This document shows, in pieces, positions 7,441 to 23,441 of a stretch of DNA of 24,828 nt. Origin of the DNA: Christensenella sp. UBA1431 (GTDB taxonomy: Bacteria > Bacillota > Clostridia > Christensenellales > UBA1431); assembly GCA_002329665.1 (NCBI GenBank), contig DCTV01000041.1, positions 1 through 24,828 of the forward strand, in the 5' to 3' direction. Under the pieces are notes generated by a model that worked only from the letters and a program-made list of their open reading frames with translations, was not told the origin of the DNA and did no database searches. The position numbers were made by a program, and so were the translations under genes. How positions within the stretch are numbered: the stretch's first letter is position 1; each line of letters begins with the position of its first letter.

Positions 7441-7497
7441 GTTGATAATTCCCCTTTCAGTTTTCTTATCATGCGCCGGCTTGCTTCGCACCATGCG

Positions 7498-9033
7498 TCA
7501 GCCGGCGGGCTTAACCGGGTTCTGGAGCTCGTGGTCGGCAAGGGCGCGGTTGACCGCGTTGAGGTAGGAGCGCACGGACGATTCGATGATGTCGGTGCTG
7601 ATGCCCTTGCCGGCGTAGGTGTTCCCGTTGAAGGACACGCGCGTGGAGACTTCGCCCAGCGCGTCCTTGCCTTCCGTAACGGCCCGGATGACATACGACT
7701 CAAGGACCATATCGGCGCCGATACAGCGGTCGATCGCGTGGTAGCACGCGTCGATGGGTCCGTCGCCCACCGCCGCCTCGCTGACGATCTCGCCCTTGTA
7801 CCTGAGCGTGACGCTCCCGATAGGCATAATCGTATTGCCCGACTGGATCTGGAACGAAACCAGTTCGTATATCTCGGGGACTTCGACGAGTTCCGTGCCC
7901 ACGAGCGCCTCGATGTCGCGGTCGGTGACGTCCTTTTTGCGGTCGGCGAGATTCTTGAATTTCACGAAGGCTTCGTCGATCTCCTCGGCCGAGAAGCTGT
8001 ATCCCAGGTCCTTGAGCCTCTGCGCGAAAGCATGGCGGCCCGAATGTTTGCCCAGCACGATGCCGGAGGCGGTTATACCCACCGATTCGGGCGTCATGAT
8101 CTCGTAGGTGCTCGCGTTGGCCAGCACTCCGTGCTGGTGGATGCCGGCTTCGTGCTTAAACGCGTTCGCTCCCACGATGGCTTTGTTGATCTGCACGTCC
8201 ACGCCCGTGATGCTGGCCACCATGCGGCTGACGCGGGTGATGCGCTCGGTCTTGATGTTGTGGCCGATCTTGTAATAGTTCGGACGCGTGGCCAGGCCCA
8301 TCACGATCTCTTCGAGCGCGGCGTTGCCCGCGCGTTCGCCCAGCCCGTTAATGGTGCATTCGACCTGGCGCGCGCCGCTCATTACGCCTGCGAGCGAATT
8401 TGCGACGGCCAGGCCCAAATCGTTGTGGCAGTGCACGGAAATCACGGCTTTTTCGATGCCTTTGACGTTTTCGCGGATGCCCTTGATCAGCGCGGCGAAC
8501 TCCTCGGGCGTCGTGTAGCCGACGGTGTCCGGGATGTTGAGGGTGGTCGCGCCCGCTTCGATGACCGCCTGCAGCACTTCGTAGAGGAATACGGGGTCGG
8601 AGCGCGTCGCGTCCTCAGGCGAGAACTCGACGTCCGCACACAGGCTGCGTGCGAGCGCGACCGAATCTGCGGCGCGGCGGAGCACGTCGTCGGGCTGCAT
8701 CCGCAGCTTGTATTCCATGTGCACGGGCGACGTTGCGATAAAGGTGTGGATACGCGGTTTTTTCGCGTCCTTGAGCGCATCCCAGCCGCGATGGATGTCG
8801 CCCTTTACGGCCCGGCACAGCGCCGCCACGGAGCACTGCACGTGGTCGCAGATTCCTTTTACGGCTTCGTAGTCGCCCGGGGACGCCGCGGGGAAGCCGC
8901 CTTCGATGCAGTCGACGCCCAGTTCTTCGAGCTGGCGGGCTATTTCGATCTTCTCCTGGAGATTGAGGTTCACTCCCGGCATCTGTTCGCCGTCGCGCAG
9001 CGTCGTATCGAAGATATAGATTTTCTCCTTCAT
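7498..9033 (-). CDS. leuA: 2-isopropylmalate synthase
   Basis: First committed enzyme of leucine synthesis, condensing acetyl-CoA with 2-oxoisovalerate. The 511 residues match a full-length LeuA. The catalytic TIM barrel carries [16 protein letters not shown] near the N-terminus, [15 protein letters not shown] (metal-binding histidines) and [14 protein letters not shown]. The C-terminal part (about residues 390-511) is the LeuA dimer domain for leucine feedback inhibition, seen at [17 protein letters not shown] and the [13 protein letters not shown] segment. AAAAGGAGGT at 9040-9049 supports the ATG at 9033 (6-nt spacing) over the one at 9036. The frame stays open to 9138, but that part is the T-box leader. 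A citramalate synthase or homocitrate synthase is less likely given length and the leuB neighbour. Confidence 0.93.
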
Positions 9034-9050
9034 CATACTACCTCCTTTTG

Positions 9051-9350
9051 GTTTAAAAAACAAAACCTCCGTCCCAATTAGGACGAAGGATTCTTCGCTG
9101 TACCACCTAATCGTGTTCCTGCCGAAAAGCAAACGCACGTGTTTTGCAGATACGGAAAGAAGCGCGGCGTTCTTTCGATATCGCTCCCCCTGTAACGGCG
9201 GGGATTTCCGTCCGGGCCTACTCGCGCCTTAGCGCTTTTAGCCGGAAGCTCCGGGATGAGGTCCCGAATGCGCTTCATACGACGATTTGCACCAGACATC
9301 GTCTCTCTGGATCTTTTCGGCACAAACGGGGATTCCTGTCATCGCTGACA
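9051..9350 (-). promoter_or_regulatory. T-box leader, leucine type, upstream of leuA
   Basis: An RNA switch that reads uncharged tRNA and lets transcription of leuA-leuB proceed when leucine is short. On the minus strand the leader shows the conserved parts in order: AGCGATGA-CAGGAA near 9344-9330, CCAGAGAGAC with the distal GGTGCAAA loop of stem I, a specifier region GGGACCTCATCCCGGAGC with CTC (Leu) at 9260-9258, then the T-box AGGTGGTACAGCG at 9108-9096. Its TGGT (9105-9102) would pair with the ACCA end of the tRNA. The T-box differs slightly from the usual AGGGTGGNACCGCG. A terminator follows at 9055-9089. Leucine is assigned from CTC in the specifier position and from the downstream genes; the codon was placed by eye. 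Confidence 0.88.
9055..9089 (-). terminator. T-box-controlled intrinsic terminator
   Basis: On the minus strand CCTTCGTCC (9089-9081) pairs with GGACGGAGG (9074-9066, one G-U pair) across a 6-nt loop and is followed by TTTTGTTTTTT. The 5' arm adjoins the T-box sequence, so the alternative antiterminator fold is possible. It ends 22 nt before the leuA start. Confidence 0.85.
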
Positions 9351-9419: not shown

Positions 9420-10931
9420 TCAACGCAGGAAATCGGGGGCCGTAACATTTTTCTTGAGGTCTTCGTCCGCCTGAAGCATTTTTAAAAACACCCGGACCAT
9501 CTCCGCGTCGAACTGCGTTCCGGCGCCCTGTTCAAGCTGACGGATGGCGGCCTGGAGGCTGAGTTGCGAACGGTAGTGGCGGTCGGAGGTCATAGCGTCG
9601 AACGCGTCAGCGATCGAGATGATGCGCGCGAGGTAATTGATCTGGTCTCCCTTCAGGCCGTCCGGGTAGCCTTCGCCGTCGATGCGCTCGTGGTGCTGCC
9701 GGACCAGCGGAACCACATCCTGGAACATCGAGACGGCCGAGAGGATATGCGCGCCCTTGAGCGGGTGCTTCTTGATCTCTTCGTATTCGCCGTGTTCCAG
9801 CGTGTCGCTCTTGAGCAGGATGTCGTCGGAGGTCCCTATTTTGCCTATGTCGTGGAAATAGCCGGCGATGCGCAGGTTCTCCAGGTCGGTGCCGGTTAGT
9901 GAGAGCGCCCGGCCGAGCTTGGTCGCGTAATAGGCCACGCGGTCGGAGTGGCCCCTGGTATAGACGTCCTTGGCGTCGACGGCCAGCCGCAGTACCTCGA
10001 TCGTATCCATGTACCTCGTTTTAAGCTGGGCGTAGGTCTGGTTGAGTTCGTCGTTTTTGATGTTGACCAGCGAATGCAGAAAGGCGTTGTTGATCGAGGA
10101 TGCCGCCTGGTTCGCGTACAGGGCAAGCAGCTGCGTGCCTTCCGTGGAATGCTGCCCCTCTACGTAGAGGACGCCTATGGAGTTGAGATATTCGTTTTCC
10201 AGCGGAAAGATGGTGCCGTTCTCCATTTCGACCCGTTTTCCGTTGGTGCGCGCAAAACCGATGTTTTCCATCATGATGGGGTCGAGCATCTCCGTGAACC
10301 GGTTGATCGGCACATGGTACGCGCCGATGCCCCTGAAGATGCTCTTGTTTGCGTTGCCCGATTCGGCGAGGTCGTCGATGAGGATGAACGCGTCCTTGCT
10401 GTTGACCAGGGGGAGTATCTGCCTGAGTATCTCCTCGAGGATGTTCCCGATCGGCTGGAGCTGGTAGATTTTGGGCACGGCGCCCAGTATGCTGTTGAGC
10501 CCGTCGCGGAACTTTTGTATTGTGCGCATTTGTCCAATCGATTTAATACCGGACTCGACAAGTAACAGCAACTGATCCAGCCGGTCGCTCTTCTCGCAGT
10601 AGGCCTGGATGTCCAGCGCCTTGATGGTGCTCAGCGGCGGCGCGAGGTCCTTGTGGCCCGTGAGCAGCAGGATATAGAGTTCCTTGTTGGTCTTGCGAAT
10701 CATTTCGACGACGGCGTCGCCGTGCAGCGGCTCCATGAAATAGTCCAGGATGAGCAGGTCGTAATGGCTTTGGGAAAGTTCCTCGAGCCCGTCCATGGGG
10801 TTAATAAAGCCTTTGCTGGCATATCCGTTGCGTTGCAGCAAAGCGGAGACGCTGTCGATGATGCCTTGTTCGTCATCGATTACCATGATGCTGATTTCGT
10901 TGTTGATGGGCGCATAGGGCCTTTTGCGCAT
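9420..10931 (-). CDS. Response regulator with REC, DUF3369-like and HD-GYP domains
   Basis: Signal-output protein predicted to hydrolyse cyclic di-GMP when phosphorylated. Of 503 residues, 13-130 form a receiver domain (acidic pocket D19/D20, phospho-acceptor D63 in LILDYF, T91, K114). Residues 135-295 resemble the DUF3369/GAF-like linker common in this architecture (FRDGLNSILGAVPKIYQL onward). Residues 305-490 are an HD-GYP domain with GHSDRVAYY, HD at 360-361 in FHDIGKIG, KKHP, HHERIDGEGYPDGL (GYP at 421-423) and ISIADAFDAMTSDRHYR. All metal ligands expected for an active phosphodiesterase appear present. There is no DNA-binding domain. The ATG lies 6 nt after the histidine kinase stop, with AAGGAG inside the last kinase codons, so translation is coupled and the two form a cognate pair at the end of the NRPS operon. 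Confidence 0.9.
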   Translation of the reverse strand: MRKRPYAPINNEISIMVIDDEQGIIDSVSALLQRNGYASKGFINPMDGLEELSQSHYDLLILDYFMEPLHGDAVVEMIRKTNKELYILLLTGHKDLAPPLSTIKALDIQAYCEKSDRLDQLLLLVESGIKSIGQMRTIQKFRDGLNSILGAVPKIYQLQPIGNILEEILRQILPLVNSKDAFILIDDLAESGNANKSIFRGIGAYHVPINRFTEMLDPIMMENIGFARTNGKRVEMENGTIFPLENEYLNSIGVLYVEGQHSTEGTQLLALYANQAASSINNAFLHSLVNIKNDELNQTYAQLKTRYMDTIEVLRLAVDAKDVYTRGHSDRVAYYATKLGRALSLTGTDLENLRIAGYFHDIGKIGTSDDILLKSDTLEHGEYEEIKKHPLKGAHILSAVSMFQDVVPLVRQHHERIDGEGYPDGLKGDQINYLARIISIADAFDAMTSDRHYRSQLSLQAAIRQLEQGAGTQFDAEMVRVFLKMLQADEDLKKNVTAPDFLR

Positions 10932-10937
10932 CTGCCT

Positions 10938-12767
10938 TTACTCCTTTCCGGTATCGAACGGGGGGAGGGAGATGTAAAATGTCGTGCCTTTCCCCAGTTC
11001 GGTATCGAACCACATGTTTCCGCGGAACATACCCTTTATGGTGCTGTAGGACATGTAAAGGCCAAGGCCTGTGCCGTGCTTGCCTTTCGTCGTGATCATT
11101 TCCTTGAATAGCAGGTCCCTGACCTTGTCGCTTATGCCCTTTCCATGGTCGCTTATTGCGATGAGCGTGCCTTCGGCCTGTTTCGTAACTCTTATCTCAA
11201 TCGTACCTTCCCGTCCTTCATACGACTGAATGGCGTTTATGATGATGTTGTCGAGTATCTGGACCAGGCTGTTGATGTCTCCGCGGATCAGGGTTTTTTG
11301 GTCTACTTCGATGTATTTTTTCAGGTGGCAACAGTTTTTGATGAGTTCGTGCTTCATCAAAATATCGACGCGCTTCAACAGGGACCCTACGGTGAACGAA
11401 CCCTGCGTGTCGATATTGAACTGTGCCGCCTGATCCTTGACTGTCGTAATAATATCGGACATATATGCCATATGCGTCTTCATCTTCATGAGCCAGTCGT
11501 GCATCTCCTCCGCGATCTCGTGGTGGTCCTTAGTCGTGACCTCTTTATCCTCGATGGAGTCGTCGTATTCCTTCACGAGATACTGCAACTGGTCTATTCC
11601 GCCGGAAACGGAGAAGATCGGCGTTTTCAGGTTATGCGCTATGCCGCCGATGAGTTGGCCCAGCGAAGCCAGTCGCTGCCTTTCGAGCAAAACGGCCTGG
11701 TTTTCCTGGATCGTGTTGAAATCCTTCACATGCTGCGTAATATCCTTTAGCAGTATGATGATCGCGATACAGTGTTTGCCCGAAACGATAGGCGTGAACT
11801 CTATGGAGAAATGCATCTCGCTGTCGTTAAGCTCAAAATGGCGTTCTATTGATATCGTTTGCTGCGATTGAGCGGTTTTCCTGATGATGTCCATAAGCTT
11901 ATCCGGGTCGATGCCCAGCGAAGGGGTGTCGACAATTACATTATACAGGTTATTGTGTCTTTGTATAGCGATTACCGACGAAAAACTGTCTTTTAACGTT
12001 TTGTTATAGTCGATAATGTTCATATCCGGATCGATCACGATATAGCTATCCGATATTCGGTTCACAATGGTCTGCAGCGCAACGGGCGTGACCTTGAGCA
12101 GGTTGAAGCGGGTCATCGCAAAGACGTATAGCGTAATGGTTATGGAAAAGGCGGTCGGTGTCGAGTAAATCGTGAAGCCGGGTACCCCCAGCGTGTAGCA
12201 GATATTTACCGCCAACGGTATGAATGTGCCTGCGGTGACGAGGAAAGCCTGCGGCGAAAGCCGCCCGAGGTTTTTGATCGCGAACCTGATAAGGTAAAAA
12301 ATGCCGCCCAACAGGCACGCATAGGAATAAAAGGAATGTACGTAAAAATAGGGTCCGATCTCCACCGGAACGCCGGGAGCGGGCGAGTAACTGATGTAAA
12401 ACAGGTGGTGGAGGTCGTTTGTGAAAACCATGATGATCGTTATCACGGGGATGATGAACAGGAGCAGTTCCTTCCAGGAAAACGGGTGGTCCGCATGCAC
12501 ATAATGGTAACAGATAAGCAGAAAACTCACGGGTGTGAGGCATATGCCGAAATATACAACACTTTCGAAAATCAGGTATATTTGATTTCCCTCATTGAAG
12601 AAGACCACCTCGAGCATTACGGCGACCGACCAGATGATCAGTTCGACCATCGATATTAGGAACAGGTAGTGCAGGACTTTTTTGTTTCTGGATGCAAGGA
12701 TAAAGAAAAAAAGGAAGAAGATCAGCAACGTCGTTGCGAACAACAGGATGAATGAACTATCCAGCAA
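10938..12767 (-). CDS. Membrane sensor histidine kinase, 7TM-PAS-HATPase
   Basis: Sensor kinase of 609 residues. Residues 1-220 hold about seven hydrophobic helices resembling the N-terminal 7TM region of histidine kinases. A PAS-like domain follows (about 228-345, SYIVIDPDMNIIDYNKTLKD to IIILLKDITQH). A dimerisation helix carries the phospho-acceptor H378 (GGIAHNLKTPI). The ATPase domain (about 495-605) has the N box DNIIINAIQS, G1 DHGKGI and G2 GTGLGLYMS. The start is a TTG 12 nt after the NRPS stop, and the GGAGGG site overlaps that stop codon, so the kinase is translated from the NRPS message. The gene is AT-richer than its neighbours (sampled stretches near 40-50% GC), hinting at a different origin. 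The partner is the HD-GYP regulator that follows. The signal is unknown; the pathway product is a candidate. Confidence 0.9.
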   Translation of the reverse strand: MLDSSFILLFATTLLIFFLFFFILASRNKKVLHYLFLISMVELIIWSVAVMLEVVFFNEGNQIYLIFESVVYFGICLTPVSFLLICYHYVHADHPFSWKELLLFIIPVITIIMVFTNDLHHLFYISYSPAPGVPVEIGPYFYVHSFYSYACLLGGIFYLIRFAIKNLGRLSPQAFLVTAGTFIPLAVNICYTLGVPGFTIYSTPTAFSITITLYVFAMTRFNLLKVTPVALQTIVNRISDSYIVIDPDMNIIDYNKTLKDSFSSVIAIQRHNNLYNVIVDTPSLGIDPDKLMDIIRKTAQSQQTISIERHFELNDSEMHFSIEFTPIVSGKHCIAIIILLKDITQHVKDFNTIQENQAVLLERQRLASLGQLIGGIAHNLKTPIFSVSGGIDQLQYLVKEYDDSIEDKEVTTKDHHEIAEEMHDWLMKMKTHMAYMSDIITTVKDQAAQFNIDTQGSFTVGSLLKRVDILMKHELIKNCCHLKKYIEVDQKTLIRGDINSLVQILDNIIINAIQSYEGREGTIEIRVTKQAEGTLIAISDHGKGISDKVRDLLFKEMITTKGKHGTGLGLYMSYSTIKGMFRGNMWFDTELGKGTTFYISLPPFDTGKE

Positions 12768-12779
12768 ACCTGATCCCTC

Positions 12780-15700
12780 CTAATGCGCGAACAGCAGCGA
12801 ATGAACGAACGATCGGATGTATTCGATTTCCGGGCGGGGCCATTCGAAACCCGCGAGCGACAGGCACTCTTTCGTCTTTGTGGACGCGGGAACGATAAGG
12901 GGCGCGGGCATATCCGAGCCCGCTTCGGCCATGATCCCGGACAGGCCTTCGAGATCGCCCTTCCTGCTCAGGTCCTTGAGCAGGGCCCCGAACGCCTCGT
13001 TGGAGACGGTATCCACGTTTACTCCTTCGGCACGCATCGCACCGACCAGGTCCGAAACCGTCATATCGTGCGGATTGTAAACATGGAATACGCGCATGGT
13101 CATACCGTCGAGACGGGAAAGGGCGAGTATGGCCTGGGCGCATTTGTCTACGGGGGTCATATCCAGCGTGGCGGCGAGCATCCCCATCGGGACGCACCCC
13201 AGCGTAGCGAGCGAACGGATCCTTTGCGCGAACGCGTTGGCGTGCGGGTTGATCTGGAACTTCGCGTCCTCATACCGGCACGTCAGGTTGCCCACGCGGA
13301 AGATCCGCGCATCCAGCCCGCGGTCGATGGCGTCAAGCACCGCGCCTTCGGCCATGAATTTCGTTTTTACGTATTCATTATCCAAATAATTTTGGCCGAT
13401 ATAATAGCAGTCCTCGGAAAAGGTGCCGTTTTTGCCGGGGTCGTCCGTATAGCGTGTCCCGGAGACGCTGATGGTCGATACGTGCATCAGGGAGGCTCCC
13501 GCCTGTTCGCAGAACGCAACGACGTTTTCCGTCCCCGTTACGTTGACCTGGGTGAACAGCTCGGCGCGCCCGATGTGGCTGGTCAGCGCCGCGCAGTGGA
13601 TCACGGCGGAAACGCTTTTGCCAAGGGCTTCCCACTCTTTTTTTTGGATGCCCAGGTACCGGGAGGACACGTCGCCCTGCACGAGCCGAATGTTTTTCGT
13701 AAGCCGCTCGGAACGTTCGGCGCCGAAATAGAAGGCCAGGGTCTGTTTCAGACGCTGTGTGCTCTCGATGTGCTTGTTGTCCCGCACAAGACAGTATACG
13801 GTACTGTCGTAAGCTGTAATCAGTTCGTGAAGAATATGGACCCCCAGGTACCCCGTTGCGCCGGTGAGCAGGACGCGATCGAGCTTTACGCCGCCAAGAG
13901 GCTTGTCCGCGCGGTTGACGGCAACGTTCTTTCTTGCTTCCGGCCCCTGTTCGCCACCCTGATTTTTGGGCACTTGGCCTATGGCGTTGCAGACGGCGCG
14001 CAGCGTTTGCAGGTCGTAGAAATCCTGTGTGCGTATCCTCCAGTCGTATTGCAGAATGGCGGCCTGGACGCGGATGACGTCCAGCGAGGAACCGCCCAGT
14101 GCAAAGAAGTTGTCGTCAGGGCCGATGTTCTTCACGCCCAGTATCTTCGACCATATCCGCCGCATGATTCGTTCGTTCTTTGTCAGCGGTACATGCGTTT
14201 GGGAAGAAGTATGAACCACGTCTTCAATAGACGGCTCCGGCAAAGCTTTCCGATCGATCTTACCGTTCGAGGTGAGCGGAATGTTGTCCACCTCGATCAG
14301 GCGCGAGGGGATCATATAAGCCGGAAGTTGTTTGCCGAGATGCTCGCGTAGCTCCGAAAGATCTACCGGCTGCGACGCAGTAAAATACGCCGCTAAATAC
14401 TTATCGGTATTTGCACCGAAATCCTTTACAACGGATTCGACAATATTCGGGAAAGAACGGATCGTTGTCTCGATTTCTCCCAACTCGATACGATGGCCGT
14501 GAATTTTCACCTGATAATCCACGCGTCCCAGCATCTCTAAATCTCCGGAAGAATTCAGCCTGCACACATCGCCGGTACGGTACATGATATCTCCGGGAAC
14601 GAACGGATCCGGAAGGAACCTTTCTTTTGTAAGCTTCTCCCGGTGTATATAACCTACACTTACGCCGATACCGCTGATATACCCTTCGCCGGGCACCCCG
14701 GGCGGCACGAAATTCTGATGCTTATCCAGGACATACATGCGCATGTTAAGGATCGGATGTCCGATGGTGATCCGCGAACTCTTAGTAAGGTCTTTGACTG
14801 TGCAGTATACGGTTGCTTCGGTTGGCCCATACCAGTTAATGATCCGCGCATTTGTATGACGTTTGAGAAGCTTAAGCAGTGAGAGAGGAACCGGTTCCCC
14901 GCCAAGGGCAATGATACGTAAACGGGAAATAGCTTTTTTAAAGGACGAATCACTCATCATCAAAAGCATCCGCGTCGGCGTAGCCTGTATGTAAGCGGCC
15001 TTTTGGGTATTAAGCAAATCTGCGACAAGATGCGGTTGCTTTGATTCCTCGTCCGAACTCAGTACAACGGTACAACCGCAGAATAAGGGAACAAGCGTAT
15101 CTTCAACGAAAATATCAAATGCAACGGTTGTTATGGATACGCAGATATCTTCCGCACGAAAATTATGCACCCGCTTTGCTCCTTCATAATAGTTCAGCAG
15201 CGAAACCCGCGCTATGGCAACCCCCTTTGGGAGGCCGGTCGAACCCGACGTATAGATTACGTACGCCAAATCCCCGTGTAATTCGGGTATGCAGGGATTT
15301 GCAGCGTCCTCATAAAGCAGGATGCTGTCTGTATTCACGGTTGTTGCCAGGTATCCGTCGAAATCCGGGCAGTCTGTTAAAAGAACCGCTGCCTGGCTAT
15401 CCGATAAAACGAAACGGATTCGCTCTTTCGGGTACTCGGGGTCAATGGGCAGATACGCCGCACCAGCCTTCAAAACGCCCAGTATGCCTGCGACCAGATC
15501 GAACGAGCGGCGCAGGCACACGGCCACGATTTCGTTCCTTTGTACGCCCAGGCCGATGAGGTGCCGCGCTATTTGGTTGGCACGGTCGTTCAATTGTGCG
15601 TATGTCAGAGATGTCCCTTCCATGATGAGCGCAGGTTTTTCAGGGTGTTCGTATACGCGCTGCTCAAACAGGCCCTGAATGCTTTTCGTGCTATCCAGCT

Positions 15701-18700
15701 CATATTCTACGAAGTTCATCCAGGTAAGTTCGCGTATTTCCTCGGGCGTGAGCACCTGAACCCGCTTTAGTGGAATTTGGGTTTGCTCCGTCAACGTTTG
15801 AAGCAGATTCGTAAAATGGCGTGCCATTTGCACTATGCTGTTTTTCTTGAACAGCGCGGTGTTGTATTCGAATTCGCAGCGCAGGGAGCGCGCGTTGTCG
15901 TATACTTCCAGCGTCAGGTCCAGCTTCGCGGTGCCGGGATCGAACGGGCAGAGGCTGACCTTGAGGCCCTCCATCTGAGGGAGCGAACCGCTTATAGTCT
16001 GCAGGACCAGCATCGTATCGAACAGGGGGTTGCGGCTCAGGGAACGCGCGATGCCCAGGTCGCTCACGATCAGATCGAGGGGATAATCCGCATTCTGTAA
16101 AGCCAAGAGGCAGTTTTCGCGCACGGTGCTGAGGAATTCCCCGAAGGTCATGTCGCTCCTTGGGAAACTGCGTATCGGGAGCGTGTTGACGAACATCCCG
16201 GGCATGTCTTTGAGTTCGTCGCGCGAGCGTCCGGCCACGGGGACGCCTACCACGATGTCTTCCTGCGACGTGTATTTGTAGAGGAACACGTTGTATACCG
16301 CGAAGAACAGCATGAAAAGCGTCACGTCCTGCCCCTGGGCAAAGTTTCGCAGCTTCTCCGAAAGCGTTTCCGGGAGCGTGAAGCGCATGCGCGCGCCCGC
16401 AAACGTTTGCAGCGCGCCACGCGGGCGGTCCGTGTGCAGGTTCAGCAGTGGCACCCCGTCGCCGAGCGCGGCTTTCCAGTATGCGCCCTGCTTTTTGCCC
16501 GCTTCCGAAGCCAGGAAGTCGAGGTGCCACATCGTATAATCCTTGTATTCGATGTCTTTGCCAAGCGGGAGTTTGTTGCTGTAAAGGGCGAAGAGTTCCT
16601 TTAGCAGTATATCCATGGAGTGCCCGTCGCAGACGCTGTGGTGGATATTGATATAGAGGATATGGCTCTGCTGTCCCCTGCTGAGCAAGGTTGCACGCAA
16701 CAGCGGCGGCACGGAAAGATCGAAGGGCCTGTTCAGGTTTTTAAGCGCCGAACGCAGGCCCGATGGAGGGCAGTCGTCGACTTCCAGGCTGAAATCGACA
16801 TGTTTGCGTATCTGCTGGCAAAGCCTGTTTCCGTGCATCACGAACCCTGTGCGAAGGATCCCGTGGCGCCGGATCAGGGCCTGAAAAGCCTTTTCCAGGG
16901 CCGCTACGTCCAGCGGGCCGGTGATTTTGAGCGCGAGCGGGATGTTGTAGACCGTCTGCGACCCGTCCCCGATCGAGAGCACGTACATGCGCATCTGCGC
17001 GGGAGAGACAGGGTAATACCGCCGTGCGGGAACGGGCCGGATCGGCCTGTAGTCCTGCTTGTCGGCGCTGTCGATGCACTCGGCGCATGCCTTGAGCGAA
17101 GGCGCGCGGTACATGTCTTCGAGTGAGATGTCGACATGGAAGGTGTTCTGCACTTCGCCCATCGCGGCGACGATGCTCAGCGAATCGCCCCCGATGTCGA
17201 AAAAGCTGTCGTTGCGCCCTATGGGGTGGACTTTGAGGATCCTGCTCCAGATGGAGGCGAGGGCTTTTTCGGTTTCGGTGGCGGGCGGATCGAAGTCGTC
17301 GACGACGGTGGTGATCGCATGTTTGAGCGGGTCGGGCAGGCGCTTTTTATCGAGCTTCCCGCTGAAATTGAGCGGGAGTTCGTCGAGAACGACGAAATAG
17401 GACGGGATCATGTAGCCGGGCAGGTCGCGCGAGAGCACCGTGATGAGTTGCGAACGGGTGGGGAGGTCGCTGCCGCAGATGTATGCGCAAAGGTATTTTC
17501 GGCCGTTTTCGTCCGCTCTCCGGTCGACCACCGCGCAGGAACGGACGCCTTGGACCTGGGACAGGCGGTTTTCGATCTCGCCCAGCTCGATCCTGTAGCC
17601 CCTGATCTTCACCTGCTGGTCTACGCGGCCCAGGAATTCGATGTCGCCCAGCGGGTACCAGCGCGCCAGGTCCCCCGTGCGGTACATTTTCTCGCCCGGA
17701 GCGAACGGGTTGTCCACGAAAGCGGCGGCGGTTAGTTCGGGCCGATTGACATAGCCGCGCGCGAGGCCGCGGCCGCTGATGTAAAGTTCCCCGTAAACGC
17801 CGATGGGCACGGGATTCTTGTGCGCGTCGAGTATGTATATCTTCGTGTTGGGCATCGGCTTGCCAATATTGACGCTCCTGCTGTCCGTGAGGTCTTTGCA
17901 GGTTGCGGCGATGGTGATTTCCGTCGGCCCGTAAAAATTCAGGATACGGGCGCCCGTGCAGGCTTTGATCTTGCGAAGGAGCGCATCGGAAAGCACGTCG
18001 CCGCCCAGCATGATCTCGCGGACGTGGGGCAGGCACTTCCGGGCGAGTTCGTCGCTCAGAAGAAGCTGCATGCGCGACGGCGTGAACATGAGCTTGTTCA
18101 CTTTGTTTTTCTCCAGGAGCCGGGCCAGCTTGCGCGGGATCGACGTTTCGTGTTCTGCCGCCAGCACCAGCGTCGCGCCGCTGACCAGCGTCGGGAGCGA
18201 CTCCATGATGAACAGGTCGAACGAGATGGAAGCGGCGCAGAGCACGCGGTTCCCGGGGGAGAAATCCATGATGGAACAGAGCGAATACAGGAAATGGACG
18301 ATCGAACGGTGCTCGATGGCAACGCCCTTGGGCATCCCTGTAGACCCTGAAGTATAGATGACATAGGCCAGATCTTCCGGTTTGATGCGCACCTTGGGCG
18401 AAGTCCCTTTCAGTCCCCGGATCGTATCGGTCGTGAGTATCTCGATACTGAGGTCCTGGCGGAAGCGGTCAAGGAGCCTTTCGGAGAGCAGCAGCGCACG
18501 CGCGCCGCAGTCTTCGAGCATATAGGAGACCCTCTCTGCAGGCAGTTCGGGGTTGATGGGCAGGAACGCGCAGCCCGCCTTAAGCACGCCGAGTATGCAT
18601 ACGGGAAGGTCGAGCGAACGGTCGACCATCACACCCACGATGCTGTCCGGGCCCAGGCCCATCGCCCGCAGCCTCCTTGCGAGCGCCCCGGCCCTTGCGT

Positions 18701-20171
18701 CGAGCTTGGCGTAGGTGAGGGAGCTTTCGCCGGCGATAACGGCGACGGCACCGGGAGAGCGCATCACCTGCGCCTTCCAGAGATCGGCCAGGGATTTGCC
18801 TTCTGGAAACTCGGTTTTGGTATCGTTGAACCGGTTCAAAATGCGGTCGGCTTCCTCGACCGTGAGCATATTGAGCCGGGCAAGGTTCTTTTTGGGGTAT
18901 GCGAGCACGTCGTTGATGATGCAGAACATGTGCTCGTGGATGTATTCGATCTCCTTGAGGGAAAACAGGGGAACGTGATGGTCGTAGTCCATGATGAACC
19001 TGCCTTCGCCCTCGTGGTCGTCCACGTGAATGCTCAGCGACGTGACCTGATGACCGGAAAAATGCCACCGACCCTCTTCGGTGAAAGCCCTTGTCTTCTT
19101 GTCGAACATCGCATTCTGGTAGGACAGGGTAATGTCGTAGAGCGATTCGAGGCCTTTGTGCGTTTTGCGGAGGTCCTGCAAGAGCAGGTTGTACGGATAC
19201 TTTTGGTGCTTGAGCACGGACATCCAGGCGTTCGAGACCGTCTGCATGAATCTGTCGAAAGGCAGGTTTTCGTCGATCTCGATGCGCACGGGGACGGTGC
19301 TCACATACATGCCGATCGACGTTTTCGACTCCTGCGTGGTGCGGTTGACTACCGGAGCGCCCACGACGATGTCGCGTTTGCCGGTCACCCGGAAGATATA
19401 GGCGCTCAGCGCGCTCATGAAGAAGGTGAAGATGGATTTGTTCGTCTGCCGGCAATACGCCCTGATCTGTTCGGAGAGTTTCGGCTGCAGCATGAACGCC
19501 TTACGCCGCGCCCGCGTCCCGTAGTAGGTTTCTTTTTTCTCTTTTAACACGGTGGGCTCGGGCGGGGATTCGAAACGCCGGTTCCAGAACTGCCTGTCCA
19601 TGACGAAACGCTTTGATTCCAGATACTTCCGTTCGTTGTGGATGTAATCGATATACGATCCCGGCGGGTCCTGGTTGAGGGGTTCGCCCGAGAGCAGCGC
19701 ACGGTAATTGTCGATCACTATGCCGGAAGCCAGGACCAGGGAAAACCCGTCGGACATGATATGGTGCACCTTCGCATAAAGCGCGCCTTTGCCGCCGGGC
19801 AACTTGATGATCGCGAAATAATACAGGCAGGAATCGAGCATGGTCATCGGCGCCGCCGTCTGGGCCTGGTCCCACTCGAAAAGCTGGCGGAGGCCGGAGG
19901 AGCTGAAATCGATGACGTCGATCCTTTGGTCCGTAAACGGGGCTATGTATTGGAAGGGGACGCCGTTGACTTCCGTTATGCGCAGGCGGATCGTGTCGTT
20001 CTTTTCGATGAACGCCAGCACGGCTTTTTCTATGTACTCAAGGTTGAGCTTTCCCTTGATCTTTAGGGTGCCCGCGATATTCCACATGCTGGTGCCCGGA
20101 TGAAGTTTTTCGCTGTACCAGATACGGCGCTGCGGGTGTGAAAGCGGGTAAAGGTTTTTTTCTTCCTTCAT
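12780..20171 (-). CDS. Two-module NRPS with terminal reductase, C-A-T-C-A-T-R
   Basis: A 2463-residue synthetase that should join two amino acids and release the product reductively. Domains in order: C1 (5-437, HHIMSDG at 136-142), A1 (459-950, YTSGSTGMPKG at 606-616), T1 (962-1033, GGDS with S997), C2 (1051-1482, HHSVCDG at 1177-1183, LCL-like), A2 (1497-1977, YTSGSTGLPKG from 1640), T2 (1997-2067, LGGSS with S2029) and R (2097-2463, GATGYLG at 2104-2110, YVKTK at 2267-2271). There is no epimerase or thioesterase. A condensation domain at the very start suggests acylation of the first residue. Specificity residues read by eye are DLMMMGFIAK (A1) and DIEQAGWVYK (A2), neither confidently assignable. 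The ATG at 20171 has AAGGTGG about 6 nt upstream; a TTG at 20210 overlapping the transferase stop is the alternative. Positions 14160-15420 (A2) are clearly AT-richer. It is the second gene of a minus-strand operon. Confidence 0.93.
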   Translation of the reverse strand: MKEEKNLYPLSHPQRRIWYSEKLHPGTSMWNIAGTLKIKGKLNLEYIEKAVLAFIEKNDTIRLRITEVNGVPFQYIAPFTDQRIDVIDFSSSGLRQLFEWDQAQTAAPMTMLDSCLYYFAIIKLPGGKGALYAKVHHIMSDGFSLVLASGIVIDNYRALLSGEPLNQDPPGSYIDYIHNERKYLESKRFVMDRQFWNRRFESPPEPTVLKEKKETYYGTRARRKAFMLQPKLSEQIRAYCRQTNKSIFTFFMSALSAYIFRVTGKRDIVVGAPVVNRTTQESKTSIGMYVSTVPVRIEIDENLPFDRFMQTVSNAWMSVLKHQKYPYNLLLQDLRKTHKGLESLYDITLSYQNAMFDKKTRAFTEEGRWHFSGHQVTSLSIHVDDHEGEGRFIMDYDHHVPLFSLKEIEYIHEHMFCIINDVLAYPKKNLARLNMLTVEEADRILNRFNDTKTEFPEGKSLADLWKAQVMRSPGAVAVIAGESSLTYAKLDARAGALARRLRAMGLGPDSIVGVMVDRSLDLPVCILGVLKAGCAFLPINPELPAERVSYMLEDCGARALLLSERLLDRFRQDLSIEILTTDTIRGLKGTSPKVRIKPEDLAYVIYTSGSTGMPKGVAIEHRSIVHFLYSLCSIMDFSPGNRVLCAASISFDLFIMESLPTLVSGATLVLAAEHETSIPRKLARLLEKNKVNKLMFTPSRMQLLLSDELARKCLPHVREIMLGGDVLSDALLRKIKACTGARILNFYGPTEITIAATCKDLTDSRSVNIGKPMPNTKIYILDAHKNPVPIGVYGELYISGRGLARGYVNRPELTAAAFVDNPFAPGEKMYRTGDLARWYPLGDIEFLGRVDQQVKIRGYRIELGEIENRLSQVQGVRSCAVVDRRADENGRKYLCAYICGSDLPTRSQLITVLSRDLPGYMIPSYFVVLDELPLNFSGKLDKKRLPDPLKHAITTVVDDFDPPATETEKALASIWSRILKVHPIGRNDSFFDIGGDSLSIVAAMGEVQNTFHVDISLEDMYRAPSLKACAECIDSADKQDYRPIRPVPARRYYPVSPAQMRMYVLSIGDGSQTVYNIPLALKITGPLDVAALEKAFQALIRRHGILRTGFVMHGNRLCQQIRKHVDFSLEVDDCPPSGLRSALKNLNRPFDLSVPPLLRATLLSRGQQSHILYINIHHSVCDGHSMDILLKELFALYSNKLPLGKDIEYKDYTMWHLDFLASEAGKKQGAYWKAALGDGVPLLNLHTDRPRGALQTFAGARMRFTLPETLSEKLRNFAQGQDVTLFMLFFAVYNVFLYKYTSQEDIVVGVPVAGRSRDELKDMPGMFVNTLPIRSFPRSDMTFGEFLSTVRENCLLALQNADYPLDLIVSDLGIARSLSRNPLFDTMLVLQTISGSLPQMEGLKVSLCPFDPGTAKLDLTLEVYDNARSLRCEFEYNTALFKKNSIVQMARHFTNLLQTLTEQTQIPLKRVQVLTPEEIRELTWMNFVEYELDSTKSIQGLFEQRVYEHPEKPALIMEGTSLTYAQLNDRANQIARHLIGLGVQRNEIVAVCLRRSFDLVAGILGVLKAGAAYLPIDPEYPKERIRFVLSDSQAAVLLTDCPDFDGYLATTVNTDSILLYEDAANPCIPELHGDLAYVIYTSGSTGLPKGVAIARVSLLNYYEGAKRVHNFRAEDICVSITTVAFDIFVEDTLVPLFCGCTVVLSSDEESKQPHLVADLLNTQKAAYIQATPTRMLLMMSDSSFKKAISRLRIIALGGEPVPLSLLKLLKRHTNARIINWYGPTEATVYCTVKDLTKSSRITIGHPILNMRMYVLDKHQNFVPPGVPGEGYISGIGVSVGYIHREKLTKERFLPDPFVPGDIMYRTGDVCRLNSSGDLEMLGRVDYQVKIHGHRIELGEIETTIRSFPNIVESVVKDFGANTDKYLAAYFTASQPVDLSELREHLGKQLPAYMIPSRLIEVDNIPLTSNGKIDRKALPEPSIEDVVHTSSQTHVPLTKNERIMRRIWSKILGVKNIGPDDNFFALGGSSLDVIRVQAAILQYDWRIRTQDFYDLQTLRAVCNAIGQVPKNQGGEQGPEARKNVAVNRADKPLGGVKLDRVLLTGATGYLGVHILHELITAYDSTVYCLVRDNKHIESTQRLKQTLAFYFGAERSERLTKNIRLVQGDVSSRYLGIQKKEWEALGKSVSAVIHCAALTSHIGRAELFTQVNVTGTENVVAFCEQAGASLMHVSTISVSGTRYTDDPGKNGTFSEDCYYIGQNYLDNEYVKTKFMAEGAVLDAIDRGLDARIFRVGNLTCRYEDAKFQINPHANAFAQRIRSLATLGCVPMGMLAATLDMTPVDKCAQAILALSRLDGMTMRVFHVYNPHDMTVSDLVGAMRAEGVNVDTVSNEAFGALLKDLSRKGDLEGLSGIMAEAGSDMPAPLIVPASTKTKECLSLAGFEWPRPEIEYIRSFVHSLLFAH

Positions 20172-20206
20172 GCAAACCACCTTGCATACGTTTTTTTGAT
20201 ACGGGA

Positions 20207-20872
20207 TCAAAAATCATCCAGTTCGTCCAGGGTCGGCATTATTACGGCTGCGGGAGGCGCGCCGAAAGCGAGGCAGGCGGCGGCCTGGTAGCCGTCCCAA
20301 AGGGAGTAGAGCCCGAATGTGTACCCCGGCACATTGAACATGACGGCATCGCCTTCAATCGTGAAGGACAGGGACCGAAGCTCGCAGGCTATGCCCTGGC
20401 CGGTCTGCTTAAGATAACTCTCCTTGAGCGTCCAGATCCTGAAAAAGAACCCATCTTTGTCGGTGCTGCCTTTAAAAGCCGCCAGTTCGCATTCTGACAT
20501 GACCCGCCTGGCCAGCGCTGGCTCGACCCGGCGTACGCGCTCTACGTCCGCTCCGACAGGCGCGCCGTGGACAGCGCAAAACGCGGCCGCGCCCGAATGG
20601 CTCAGGCTGAAGTGCGGGGCGCCGGGGCCCGTGAAATACGGTTTGCCCGCCGGGGTGCGGGCCAGCTTCAAGGATTGCGCGTCCACGCCGCAGGCGTCCC
20701 TTATTGCGTACAGGAGCAAACGTCTCGTGCACAAACGGGTCGCCGCGTCCTGGGGGTTGCGTTGATCGAGGATGCGCGCGCGCGTTTCCCCGTCGAGCCA
20801 GCGGAGCCAGCGCGAAGCGGGGAGTTCCCGCAGCGAAGGCGGCGCCTTGACGGCGTAGAGTTGCGCCGTCAT
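20207..20872 (-). CDS. Sfp-type 4'-phosphopantetheinyl transferase
   Basis: Transfers phosphopantetheine from coenzyme A to carrier-protein serines, here surely S997 and S2029 of the neighbouring NRPS. The 221 residues show GKPYF (about 76-80), HFSLSHSG (87-94), the magnesium site VGADVE (D109, E111) and FFFRIWTLKESYLKQTGQG with E151, the hallmark of the Sfp/AcpT group. The size fits the Sfp class, not the shorter AcpS. The gene ends 35 nt before the NRPS ATG, or overlaps the alternative TTG. The ATG at 20872 lacks a good ribosome-binding site. Upstream, a GGAGG plus ATG at 20908 opens an in-frame reading of eight codons that ends in TGA 12 nt before this ATG. Translation may therefore rely on re-initiation, or the original N-terminus has been lost. 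Confidence 0.92.
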   Translation of the reverse strand: MTAQLYAVKAPPSLRELPASRWLRWLDGETRARILDQRNPQDAATRLCTRRLLLYAIRDACGVDAQSLKLARTPAGKPYFTGPGAPHFSLSHSGAAAFCAVHGAPVGADVERVRRVEPALARRVMSECELAAFKGSTDKDGFFFRIWTLKESYLKQTGQGIACELRSLSFTIEGDAVMFNVPGYTFGLYSLWDGYQAAACLAFGAPPAAVIMPTLDELDDF

Positions 20873-22232: not shown

Positions 22233-23441
22233 ATGGAAGATTCTTCGGAGAAGCGTAAGGTAAAATCCATCACATCGTTGTGGAGCCGCATTGGGCATAA
22301 AGCATCCGTCAGACTTGGCAGCGGGTCGGTACCGGCACAATACCGGCGCATGTTCGGTCGGAAGAACAACAGCGTCAACGCTTCGAGGTGCGTGATCGTC
22401 GAAGTGCTTGCAATCGCCGTCGTGCTGGGACAGATCATAGGCGTCGTCGGCGGGCTGGTGGACGTCATTGAACACGTCAGGGGCACGGCGCTTGTCGCGT
22501 CCTACGTCTTCGTCACGACGCTTTGCGTCCTGCTGTTTTTATATTTCCTCGTCAAACGCCGGTTCATCCGGGGGAGCCGGTTCACGTTGGCGCTCAACCA
22601 CGTGAGCGTTGTCGTTTGCATGGCTTACGTCGTTTTCATGTCGATCCTGATCTATCCGATGACCGTCAGTGTTGTGGTCTATGTGCTCGGCCTTTTCTCG
22701 TTCGCGATGTTTTTTTACAGCCCGATAAGGGAATCCATCGTCGTGTTTGGCCTGTCCCAGGCGGTGTACGTCACGCTGCTGGCCGTTTACCGTTCCGGTC
22801 AATACGAAATATCCCAGGTCATCTTCGTGACGACGGCCTGCGCTGTCCTTGCGTGGATCGGTTCGCGGATCCTGTACAGGGTGCGTGCCGGCGCTTTCAT
22901 GAGCGAGGTTACGCAGGCGGAACTCCAGCATATGTCCCTGACCGACCCGCTGCTGGGCATCTCCAACCGCAGGAAATTCGACATCGCGATGCAGTTCAGC
23001 TGGAACTACTGCCGGCGTGAGCAAAAACCCATATCGCTGGTGATGATAGACATCGACCATTTCAAACACTTCAACGACCGATACGGCCACAGCGAAGGGG
23101 ACGAATGCCTTCGTATGGTGACCAAGGCCATCGGCGCCATGATCCACCGCGAGAGCGACGAACTCGCGCGCGTGGGCGGAGAGGAACTCGCGTTCATGCT
23201 TCCCCTCACCGCCCTGGAAGACGCCGTGGACATCATGGAAAGGGCGCGCACCGCCGTGCTCGAACTCGGCATCCCCAACCCAGATTCGCCTTTCAGTGTC
23301 ATTACGGTGAGCGCGGGCGTTGCCTGTACGATGCCGGGAATAGGAAAGCGCATCGAGTCGCCGCAGGAGTTGTATGAAGCCGCCGACAACGCTCTGTATC
23401 ACGCGAAAAAAACAGGCCGCAACCGTATCTGCATCGCATGA
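22233..23441 (+). CDS. Membrane-anchored diguanylate cyclase (GGDEF)
   Basis: Makes cyclic di-GMP from two GTP. The 402-residue protein has a basic N-terminal tail, about six hydrophobic helices (about 52-218), and a C-terminal GGDEF domain (about 232-402). That domain has LTDPLLGISNRRKFD, MIDIDHFKHFNDRYGHSEGDECL and VGGEELAFML. The signature is GGEEL (315-319): E for D is common, but L for F is unusual and activity needs testing. An RxxD inhibitory site (R306 to D309) sits exactly five residues before the motif, indicating product feedback. The C-terminal segment LYEAADNALYHAKKTGRNRI is typical. The ATG has AAGGG about 8 nt upstream. It is divergent from the HAD gene. Its product would be the substrate of the HD-GYP protein encoded at 9420-10931. 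Confidence 0.9.
   Translation: MEDSSEKRKVKSITSLWSRIGHKASVRLGSGSVPAQYRRMFGRKNNSVNASRCVIVEVLAIAVVLGQIIGVVGGLVDVIEHVRGTALVASYVFVTTLCVLLFLYFLVKRRFIRGSRFTLALNHVSVVVCMAYVVFMSILIYPMTVSVVVYVLGLFSFAMFFYSPIRESIVVFGLSQAVYVTLLAVYRSGQYEISQVIFVTTACAVLAWIGSRILYRVRAGAFMSEVTQAELQHMSLTDPLLGISNRRKFDIAMQFSWNYCRREQKPISLVMIDIDHFKHFNDRYGHSEGDECLRMVTKAIGAMIHRESDELARVGGEELAFMLPLTALEDAVDIMERARTAVLELGIPNPDSPFSVITVSAGVACTMPGIGKRIESPQELYEAADNALYHAKKTGRNRICIA

What the first reader, a model, noticed from the sequence alone, without database searches (positions are those of the whole stretch)
12780..20872. Compact NRPS cluster predicted to make an N-acyl dipeptide aldehyde or pyrazinone
The sequence shows C-A-T-C-A-T-R, intact carrier serines, a reductase with GATGYLG and YVKTK, and a dedicated Sfp-type transferase immediately upstream. 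Known relatives (aureusimine AusA, which is A-T-C-A-T-R, and gut Clostridia NRPS clusters) release dipeptide aldehydes that act as protease inhibitors or cyclise to pyrazinones. The extra first C domain here suggests a fatty-acyl cap, which would block cyclisation and keep the reactive aldehyde. The product and its target are inference.
Basis: partly seen in the sequence, partly recalled or inferred. Interest (0 to 1): 0.75.

Follow-up and report, generated by a model that had tools for sequence, protein, structure and literature searches.

The report
Peptide-aldehyde synthetase with dedicated sensor kinase
An unnamed bacterium, probably a Clostridia relative, carries an enzyme assembly line predicted to make a fatty-acyl dipeptide aldehyde, and the gene sits in one unit with a membrane sensor kinase and a predicted c-di-GMP-degrading regulator, a pairing found again in many Clostridia, so the product may be a cell-to-cell signal and not only a protease inhibitor.

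Summary
In detail: one frame (ATG 20171 to 12780, minus strand, 2463 aa) encodes C-A-T-C-A-T-R with intact motifs, directly behind an Sfp-type transferase. C1 is a starter-type (acylating) condensation domain, so an N-acyl dipeptide aldehyde is the best product guess and a pyrazinone is unlikely. That chemistry is a known kind. In 396 genomes of the order, NRPSs at least 39% identical, the kinase and the regulator are found in the same 7 genomes, each time in that gene order. In a class-wide sample, 17 of 29 full-length kinase places have an NRPS directly upstream, 2 a contig-cut remnant of one, 3 a PilZ plus GNAT-like protein, 7 neither. Release domains vary, but the first C domains of the 24 linked NRPSs placed in a tree fall in one starter clade. 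Best reading: a nonribosomal N-acyl-aminoacyl signal read by its own kinase and passed to c-di-GMP, working like DSF/Rpf. Product, ligand and amino acids are untested.

The parts
20207..20872 (-). Sfp-type 4'-phosphopantetheinyl transferase (221 aa)
   Evidence: ACPS 5e-14 and AASDHPPT_N 4.1e-08 in Pfam
12780..20171 (-). NRPS, C-A-T-C-A-T-R, 2463 aa from ATG (2476 aa if read from the TTG at 20210)
   Evidence: same length as database copy P0011
18861..20168 (-). C1, starter-type condensation domain, HHIMSDG (borders approximate)
17355..18776 (-). A1 adenylation domain, pocket residues read as DLMSILFIAK (borders approximate)
   Evidence: positions placed by motif anchors recalled from the GrsA scheme
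17073..17264 (-). T1 carrier, DIGGDSLS
15726..17021 (-). C2, elongation (LCL-like) condensation domain, HHSVCDG
14238..15668 (-). A2 adenylation domain, pocket residues read as DIETILWVYK (borders approximate)
13971..14165 (-). T2 carrier, ALGGSSLD (borders approximate)
12783..13874 (-). R, terminal thioester reductase (NAD_binding_4), GATGYLG, YVKTK (borders approximate)
10938..12767 (-). 7TM histidine kinase: HisKA_7TM, PAS_4, HATPase_c; AGGAGG overlaps the NRPS stop codon, TTG start 8 bases on
   Evidence: seven long helices in the first 220 residues of the model (pTM 0.44 for the whole); phosphoacceptor His378 invariant in 48 of 48 aligned
9420..10931 (-). Response regulator REC-DUF3369-HD-GYP, receiver Asp, HD and HHExxDGxGYP present

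Best explanation
The four genes 20872 to 9420 (Sfp, NRPS, 7TM kinase, HD-GYP regulator) act as one nonribosomal signalling unit. Sfp primes the two carriers. C1 joins a fatty acyl group (from acyl-CoA or an acyl carrier) to the amino acid loaded by A1, C2 adds the amino acid loaded by A2, and R releases an N-acyl dipeptide aldehyde. The product leaves the cell or stays in the membrane and is sensed by the 7TM domain of the next gene's kinase; phosphotransfer to the REC domain changes HD-GYP hydrolysis of c-di-GMP and so the cells' lifestyle. Shown: the domains, the motifs, the starter type of C1 by sequence, the tight gene order and its conservation. Inferred: co-transcription, the aldehyde, its export, that it is the kinase's ligand, the direction of the c-di-GMP change.
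For: In 396 genomes of the order, NRPS relatives at 39% identity or more, the kinase (E up to 1e-60) and the regulator (E up to 1e-60) are each found in 7 genomes, the same 7; all 7 show NRPS, kinase, regulator on one strand (window; six relatives; three of these are split over contig ends). Class sample of 391 genomes: of 29 full-length 7TM-kinase places, 17 have an NRPS as the next gene upstream on the same strand, 2 are contig-cut with an NRPS tail domain upstream, 3 have a PilZ plus GNAT-like protein there, 7 have neither. An HD-GYP protein follows directly on the same strand in 11 of the 17 (in 2 of the 11 only the HD-GYP part was matched). Reverse test: of the 15 best non-self matches of module 1 (716 bits and more), 14 lie directly before the kinase gene (13, G576) and 1, G556, is cut at a contig end with its tail domain and kinase on another contig. 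The first C domains of the 24 linked NRPSs put in the tree lie in one starter clade, 95/89, apart from the C1 of three R-terminated NRPSs of the order that lack the kinase. Kinase and C1 distances correlate, r 0.61, 0 of 20000 permutations as high, 19 pairs. 19 of 19 single-module linked NRPSs align better to module 1 than to module 2. DSF with RpfC and RpfG is a known case of signal synthase, kinase that binds the signal, and REC-HD-GYP (PMC6337780, passages).
Against: No ligand, product or phenotype is shown. 7 of 29 full-length kinase places have neither an NRPS nor the PilZ-GNAT gene, 6 of them in one genus whose NRPSs lie elsewhere. 18 of 32 partial matches also lack an NRPS upstream. 6 of the 17 linked kinases have no HD-GYP protein directly downstream. 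Two linked kinases that were domain-tested have a HAMP-type sensor region instead of 7TM. Distances may correlate only through shared descent; no neutral marker was tested, and the 7TM part (r 0.48) tracks C1 no better than the kinase part (0.55). No exporter lies among the four genes. In Dickeya Vfm the kinase beside an NRPS-made signal seems not to be the sensor (PMC9306890, passages).
Confidence: 0.5

Rival explanations
1. The product is an N-acyl dipeptide aldehyde that inhibits cysteine or serine proteases of competitors or the host, as proposed for gut NRPS clusters; the kinase and regulator respond to some other cue and merely co-regulate its use.
For: Same kind of product as gut clusters whose acylated dipeptide aldehydes inhibit cathepsins and the proteasome (PMC8518294, passages; ruminopeptin in PMC12327764, passages).
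Against: Two relatives with the same kinase end in a thioesterase (G146 and G710) and so should not make an aldehyde inhibitor; the regulator has no DNA-binding domain in Pfam, so it is not a pathway-specific transcription factor.
Confidence: 0.25
2. c-di-GMP controls the synthetase: the kinase senses an outside cue, HD-GYP lowers c-di-GMP, and this switches the NRPS or its product, perhaps a surface-active lipopeptide used in biofilm life. The product is an output, not the input.
For: One linked NRPS is fused to a PilZ domain (L101) with RxxxR and DxSxxG (motif recalled), and the slot in three genomes holds a YcgR-like PilZ protein with a GNAT-like rest.
Against: The window NRPS has no PilZ; PilZ was found in 1 of 9 kinase-linked NRPSs scanned with Pfam.
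Confidence: 0.2
3. The R domain gives another end product: an alcohol by four-electron reduction, or a dihydropyrazinone/pyrazinone if C1 is inactive or the cap is removed.
For: AusA, with a free amine, gives pyrazinones (PMC12153313, passages); pyrazinones were isolated as byproducts of gut dipeptide aldehydes (PMC12327764, passages).
Against: C1 has an intact HHxxxDG and starter ancestry; an acylated nitrogen cannot form the imine (established chemistry).
Confidence: 0.12
4. The neighbourhood is chance or ordinary operon drift.
For: Operons of unrelated genes exist; 7 of 29 full-length kinase places lack the pairing.
Against: Same 7 of 396 genomes for three genes, Fisher p 3.5e-15 if genomes were independent, which they are not (the 39% cut was set after seeing the list); the pairing recurs in many families of the class.
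Confidence: 0.02

Closest known systems
Gut N-acyl dipeptide aldehyde NRPS clusters (BGC0001686, N-octanoyl-Met-Phe-H; ruminopeptin of Ruminococcus bromii)
   Same: Acyl cap, dipeptide, aldehyde predicted; reported as gut bacterial products (PMC8518294 and PMC12327764, passages).
   Different: Amino acids not readable here; characterised enzymes were not compared by sequence; the passages I read do not mention a 7TM kinase or HD-GYP regulator in those clusters.
Aureusimine synthetase AusA with AusB
   Same: Two modules, terminal R, dedicated PPTase (PMC12153313, passages); the AusA model's best stretch covers residues 443-2470.
   Different: AusA is A-T-C-A-T-R with a free amine and gives pyrazinones; the window has an extra starter C and fails the AusA (1471.6 of 2500 bits) and AusB (58 of 225) cut-offs.
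DSF system RpfF-RpfC-RpfG of Xanthomonas
   Same: Signal synthase, membrane kinase and REC-HD-GYP regulator in one gene cluster; lipid signal (PMC6337780, passages).
   Different: RpfF is a putative enoyl-CoA hydratase, RpfC a hybrid kinase; here an NRPS and a non-hybrid 7TM kinase.
Vfm quorum sensing of Dickeya
   Same: Signal made by NRPS-type enzymes beside a two-component system, with adenylation-code variants that define signal groups (PMC9306890, passages).
   Different: Stand-alone type II adenylation proteins, transcriptional regulator output, kinase thought by the authors not to be the sensor.
RzmA and CDA starter condensation domains (PDB 7c1k, 4jn3)
   Same: C1 groups with them in the tree; RzmA is its best PDB match.
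   Different: Residues 7-335 of the 437 used align to RzmA; the acyl length used by the window C1 is unknown.

Membership tests
R-terminated N-acyl dipeptide aldehyde NRPS | C-A-T-C-A-T-R on one chain | tested here: met
R-terminated N-acyl dipeptide aldehyde NRPS | First C domain of starter (acylating) type | tested here: met
   by sequence only
R-terminated N-acyl dipeptide aldehyde NRPS | Reductase with GxxGxxG and YxxxK, carriers with Ser | tested here: met
   window protein and 42 other rows keep the Ser and YxxxK
R-terminated N-acyl dipeptide aldehyde NRPS | Sequence closeness to a characterised member | not tested
   no characterised gut NRPS sequence was fetched
R-terminated N-acyl dipeptide aldehyde NRPS | Aldehyde product | not testable with these tools
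   needs expression and mass spectrometry
Aureusimine synthetase AusA | NCBIfam equivalog cut-off 2500 bits | tested here: not met
   1471.6 bits
Aureusimine synthetase AusA | Begins with A, no first C | tested here: not met
   C1 present
DSF/Rpf signalling | REC-HD-GYP regulator beside a membrane kinase and a synthase | tested here: met
DSF/Rpf signalling | RpfF-type synthase and hybrid RpfC kinase | tested here: not met
   NRPS instead; kinase has HisKA_7TM, PAS_4, HATPase_c only
DSF/Rpf signalling | Ligand activates the kinase | not testable with these tools
   needs biochemistry
Vfm quorum sensing | Stand-alone adenylation proteins (type II NRPS) | tested here: not met
   multidomain NRPS
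HisKA_7TM histidine kinases (PF16927) | 7TM domain above the Pfam cut-off, with a histidine kinase ATPase | tested here: met
   142.9 against 28.6 bits; HATPase_c 71.1 against 26.4

The most novel reading that the evidence does not exclude
Clostridia hold a large, undescribed family of cell-to-cell signalling systems in which a compact synthetase makes an N-acyl amino acid or dipeptide signal (aldehyde, or acid/lactone where a thioesterase ends the chain; by a c-di-GMP-binding GNAT in some), read by a dedicated 7TM or HAMP-type kinase and turned into c-di-GMP changes; differing A-domain codes would give each lineage its own signal. The window is one member. It would make the peptide aldehydes of this clade signals first and protease inhibitors second.
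Probability: 0.42. Interest if true: 0.88.

Novelty: new variant of a known kind. Interest (0 to 1): 0.7.

Why it matters
Peptide aldehydes of gut bacteria are described as protease inhibitors; what they do for their makers is, as far as I know, open. A conserved unit with a receptor-like kinase and a predicted c-di-GMP output gives a direct, testable candidate role, a candidate receptor, and a genomic rule (starter-C NRPS followed by kinase) to find more. If true it would bring nonribosomal lipid-like signals to Clostridia and join them to c-di-GMP in the way that DSF does in Xanthomonas.

Tried and rejected
Rejected: AusA or AusB membership. Rejected: pyrazinone as main product (starter C1). 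Rejected: C1 as an elongation domain fed by an upstream loading gene; no other C domain was found in the assembly, which is 75% complete. Led nowhere: exact amino acids from pocket codes. A1 DLMSILFIAK and A2 DIETILWVYK match no code that I can recall; the A2 code differs from the relatives' common DI.TILGVYK. Led nowhere: Rfam match in the window and five related loci (none). Led nowhere: named relatives by a scan of genome contigs (one Vibrio NRPS). Led nowhere: a paper for PDB 9e4s/9e4x/9e4u (none). The 50 rows shown of the kinase's fold search are kinase, PAS or related sensor proteins and say nothing about a 7TM ligand. A ligase like that beside the NRPS of G047 was not found in the window's own assembly beyond weak domain-level matches, so the acyl donor is unknown. 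Promoter-like sites were 14 against 7.3 +/- 2.9 in shuffles and terminator-like sites 16 against 14.7 +/- 4.1, so the operon claim rests on spacing and conservation. Limits of the counts: in the large samples at most 3 candidates per genome were scored for the kinase and regulator and 2 for the NRPS, so the counts are lower bounds and an absence there is weak; in two small families every candidate was scored (NRPS in 4 of 5 genomes; kinase in 1 of 8). 3 of 32 partial kinase places end at a contig border.
Full report
What is there. The minus strand of 12780-20872 holds an Sfp-type phosphopantetheinyl transferase and a single-chain NRPS. The NRPS frame opens at a TTG (20210), but the likely start is the ATG at 20171, five bases behind AAGGTGG; the database copy P0011 has the same 2463 aa. 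Pfam gives Condensation x2, AMP-binding x2, PP-binding x2 and NAD_binding_4, in the order C-A-T-C-A-T-R. I aligned 43 proteins of 2280-2520 aa: the window protein and 42 of the 120 listed hits, one of them the window's database copy. The carrier serines and the reductase YxxxK are kept in all 43. The assembly that holds the window (1.53 Mb, 78 contigs, 75% complete) shows no other condensation domain. Its habitat is not known from any call.

Type of C1. C1 alone matches the solved starter domain of RzmA best (7c1k, 1.2e-31, 113 bits). After it come a peptide synthetase chain (8xjz, 94.7 bits), the CDA starter (93.3) and the TycC elongation domain (93.0), so apart from RzmA this list does not separate starters from elongation domains. 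C2, the control, matches TycC best (2jgp, 8.2e-96) and RzmA at only 1.2e-15. In a maximum-likelihood tree of 78 domains a split with 100/99 support puts C1 with RzmA and CDA, and C2 with TycC, Txo2 and internal domains of long Paenibacillus-type NRPSs. The CDA row is a long branch, so its exact place is unsure. The RzmA paper describes starter domains using acyl-CoA or acyl-ACP (PMC7804268, passages). In the relative G047 a ligase of the acyl-AMP/CoA type and a carrier protein lie upstream of Sfp; G088 has a gene of like size there with a BLAST match to the adenylation part of the NRPS (not domain-tested). So an acyl cap is well supported; its length and donor in the window organism are not known.

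Product. With an acylated nitrogen, an aldehyde released by R cannot close to the imine that leads to pyrazinones (established chemistry; AusA passages, PMC12153313). An N-acyl dipeptide aldehyde is therefore the best guess. This class of product is in print: N-octanoyl-Met-Phe-H from a Clostridium cluster BGC0001686, and ruminopeptin (PMC8518294 and PMC12327764, passages). I could not read the amino acids from the pocket residues (DLMSILFIAK and DIETILWVYK; positions placed by recalled motif anchors).

The NRPS stop codon TAG is the start of TAGGAGG, the Shine-Dalgarno region of the next gene, with TTG 8 bases on. That gene is a 609-aa histidine kinase with HisKA_7TM, PAS_4 and HATPase_c. Six bases after it follows a 503-aa regulator with REC, DUF3369 and HD-GYP. 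The phosphoacceptor His378 is invariant in 48 of 48 kinases aligned, namely the window protein and 47 that I picked from the 120 listed hits. The receiver Asp, the HD pair and an HHE..(D)G.GYP motif are present in the window regulator and the 16 relatives looked at; G146 reads HHERINGTGYP, and the Asp of G710 was read from the printed sequence.

Co-occurrence in the order. In 396 genomes of the order the NRPS query finds 23 genomes at E up to 1e-100; in 7 of them the best match has 39% identity or more (39-53% in the six relatives): G000, G021, G024, G047, G088, G106 and G146. The kinase and the regulator, each at E up to 1e-60, are found in exactly these 7. In the other 16 NRPS genomes, whose matches are 25-34% identical, neither was found at that threshold, with at most 3 candidates scored per genome. 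In all 7 the order is NRPS, kinase, regulator on one strand (window; relatives). In G024, G088 and G106 the unit is split over contig ends, and in G106 the NRPS lies in two overlapping frames. Fisher p is 3.5e-15 if genomes were independent, which they are not: 4 of the 7 are of one family. The identity cut was set after seeing the list; against all 23 NRPS genomes p is 8.5e-10. G146 is telling: its NRPS is C-A-T-thioesterase, 1320 aa, yet the kinase and regulator follow.

Across the class. The kinase at E up to 1e-60 is found in 48 of 391 genomes, 61 places, the window included; I fetched neighbourhoods for the other 60. 29 places are full-length 7TM matches. The next gene upstream on the same strand is an NRPS in 17; in 2 (G556, G460) a contig-cut frame that resembles the tail domain of such an NRPS (90-93% and 42-44% identity); in 3 (G576, G487, G511) a 543-aa PilZ protein; neither in 7, of which 6 are one genus with a small receiver-domain gene upstream and one is G615. 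An HD-GYP protein follows directly on the same strand in 11 of the 17; in two of these, G765 and G510, only the HD-GYP part was matched. Of the 32 partial matches, 11 follow an NRPS (10 with another sensor region, plus G655, cut), 3 stop at contig ends and 18 do not follow an NRPS. One of the 3, in G576, looks like the rest of a kinase whose start follows an NRPS on another contig. Two of the other-sensor kinases were domain-tested and have HAMP domains. A reverse search with module 1 gives 62 of 391 genomes. Of its 15 best non-self matches, 716 bits and more, 14 lie directly before a kinase of this family (13, G576) and G556 ends at a contig border, with its likely tail domain and kinase on another contig. 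Below that level NRPSs without the kinase beside them appear, for example in the genus g166, mixed with linked ones.

What varies and what stays. Linked NRPSs include C-A-T-C-A-T-R (window, G047, G021), C-A-T-R (G486, G650), C-A-T-thioesterase (G146), PilZ-fused C-A-T-thioesterase (G710), and C-A-T with a 400-aa end that Pfam does not name (G600, G651). G736 stops after the carrier, 1090 aa, with no release domain on the chain. The 400-aa end matches solved chains 9e4s and 9e4x, deposited as amino acid adenylation domain protein, at 9.3e-76, and weakly PigE; I take it for another reductase, by recall of PigE. 19 of 19 single-module linked NRPSs align better to module 1 than to module 2 of the window; plain BLAST against the whole NRPS pairs several of them with module 2 plus R instead, which I put down to the shared R domain. 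In the tree the first C domains of the 24 linked NRPSs included lie in one clade of 32 rows, 95/89, which also holds 8 database proteins whose neighbourhood I did not see; the C1 of three R-terminated NRPSs of the order without the kinase (G102, G237, G016) lie on the elongation side, on long branches. A-domain codes differ widely among linked NRPSs. Kinase and C1 distances correlate, r 0.61 for 19 pairs, 0 of 20000 permutations as high; the 7TM part gives 0.48, PAS 0.59 and the kinase part 0.55, so there is no sign that the 7TM part tracks the synthase more closely than the rest does.

The PilZ protein. Its model (mean pLDDT 83, 14 sequences) matches the c-di-GMP-binding proteins YcgR, MrkH and VCA0042 and MotI, and, for the rest, tandem GNAT acyltransferases; the GNAT matches have low E-values (2e-8 and up) but modest TM-scores, about 0.5 or less by target length. 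Its relative (about 28-30% identity) is fused to the NRPS in G710, where RxxxR and DxSxxG can be read (motif recalled); the stand-alone proteins have Asn or Thr at the Ser place. So the slot before the kinase can hold another possibly N-acylating enzyme, and c-di-GMP may feed back on synthesis.

Interpretation. The steady elements are a likely N-acylating synthase, a kinase and often an HD-GYP protein. This is the layout of RpfF, RpfC and RpfG, where a fatty-acid signal is bound by the kinase and REC-HD-GYP degrades c-di-GMP (PMC6337780, passages). I therefore favour a nonribosomal signal read by its own kinase. It would work like DSF signalling but is not a member of that family: the synthase and the kinase type differ. 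Vfm of Dickeya is a precedent for an NRPS-type signal with a two-component system, and also a warning, since there the kinase seems not to be the sensor (PMC9306890, passages). Rivals are an inhibitor with unrelated regulation, and c-di-GMP control of a product that is output only.

Novelty. The NRPS is a new member of a known kind. The unit with 7TM kinase and HD-GYP was not met in my searches: the listings show no title or abstract opening that describes it, in an open-access library only and with at most 20 papers shown per call. I call the whole a new variant of a known kind.

Noticed in passing
L101:10701-16337 (-), genome G710: NRPS fused behind a PilZ plus GNAT-like region, with a thioesterase end, directly before a 7TM kinase and an HD-GYP regulator: a synthetase that may bind c-di-GMP.
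   Followed up: partly
L096:3147-4778, L097:4176-5807, L098:3854-5485: Unnamed 543-aa family modelled as YcgR-like PilZ plus tandem GNAT, placed before the kinase where others have an NRPS; the protein search lists 14 proteins, the query included.
   Followed up: partly
L084:8012-9214 and the ends of the NRPSs in L085 and L089: 400-aa end domain of C-A-T NRPSs, no Pfam family in the two scanned, matched by PDB 9e4s/9e4x; perhaps a second kind of release reductase.
   Followed up: partly
43 family proteins: C1 reads HHxxxDA in 30 of 43 and C2 lacks the Gly of HHxxxDG (K, R, Q, M, A or W instead) in 32 of 43; the window keeps Gly in both. Why bulky residues are tolerated there is unexplained.
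   Followed up: no
L046:13917-18104, L049:13235-13531: R-terminated NRPSs of the order without the kinase sit beside other signalling genes: MatE-HATPase and SpoIIE phosphatase in one locus, STAS in another (partner switching). Tested by Pfam in these two loci only.
   Followed up: partly
L030:6057-7604, genome G024: A 7TM-PAS-GGDEF protein directly follows the HD-GYP regulator, as if synthesis and breakdown of c-di-GMP were under like sensors.
   Followed up: partly
window 22233-23441 (+): GGDEF protein divergent from the HAD phosphatase gene upstream of the unit; c-di-GMP synthesis nearby, link unknown.
   Followed up: no
L026:12610-14620 (-), L027:7890-9599 (-): Acyl-AMP/CoA ligase and carrier protein upstream of Sfp in G047, and a gene of like size in G088; possible acyl supply for C1.
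   Followed up: partly
L107, L116, L117, L118, L122: Five loci with two kinases in tandem whose kinase domain (45-58% identity) but not sensor is like the window's, with no NRPS beside them.
   Followed up: no
window 6364-9138 (-): leuA- and leuB-like genes downstream of the unit; the 658-aa plus-strand frame 7105-9081 overlaps leuA on the other strand and looks like its shadow.
   Followed up: no
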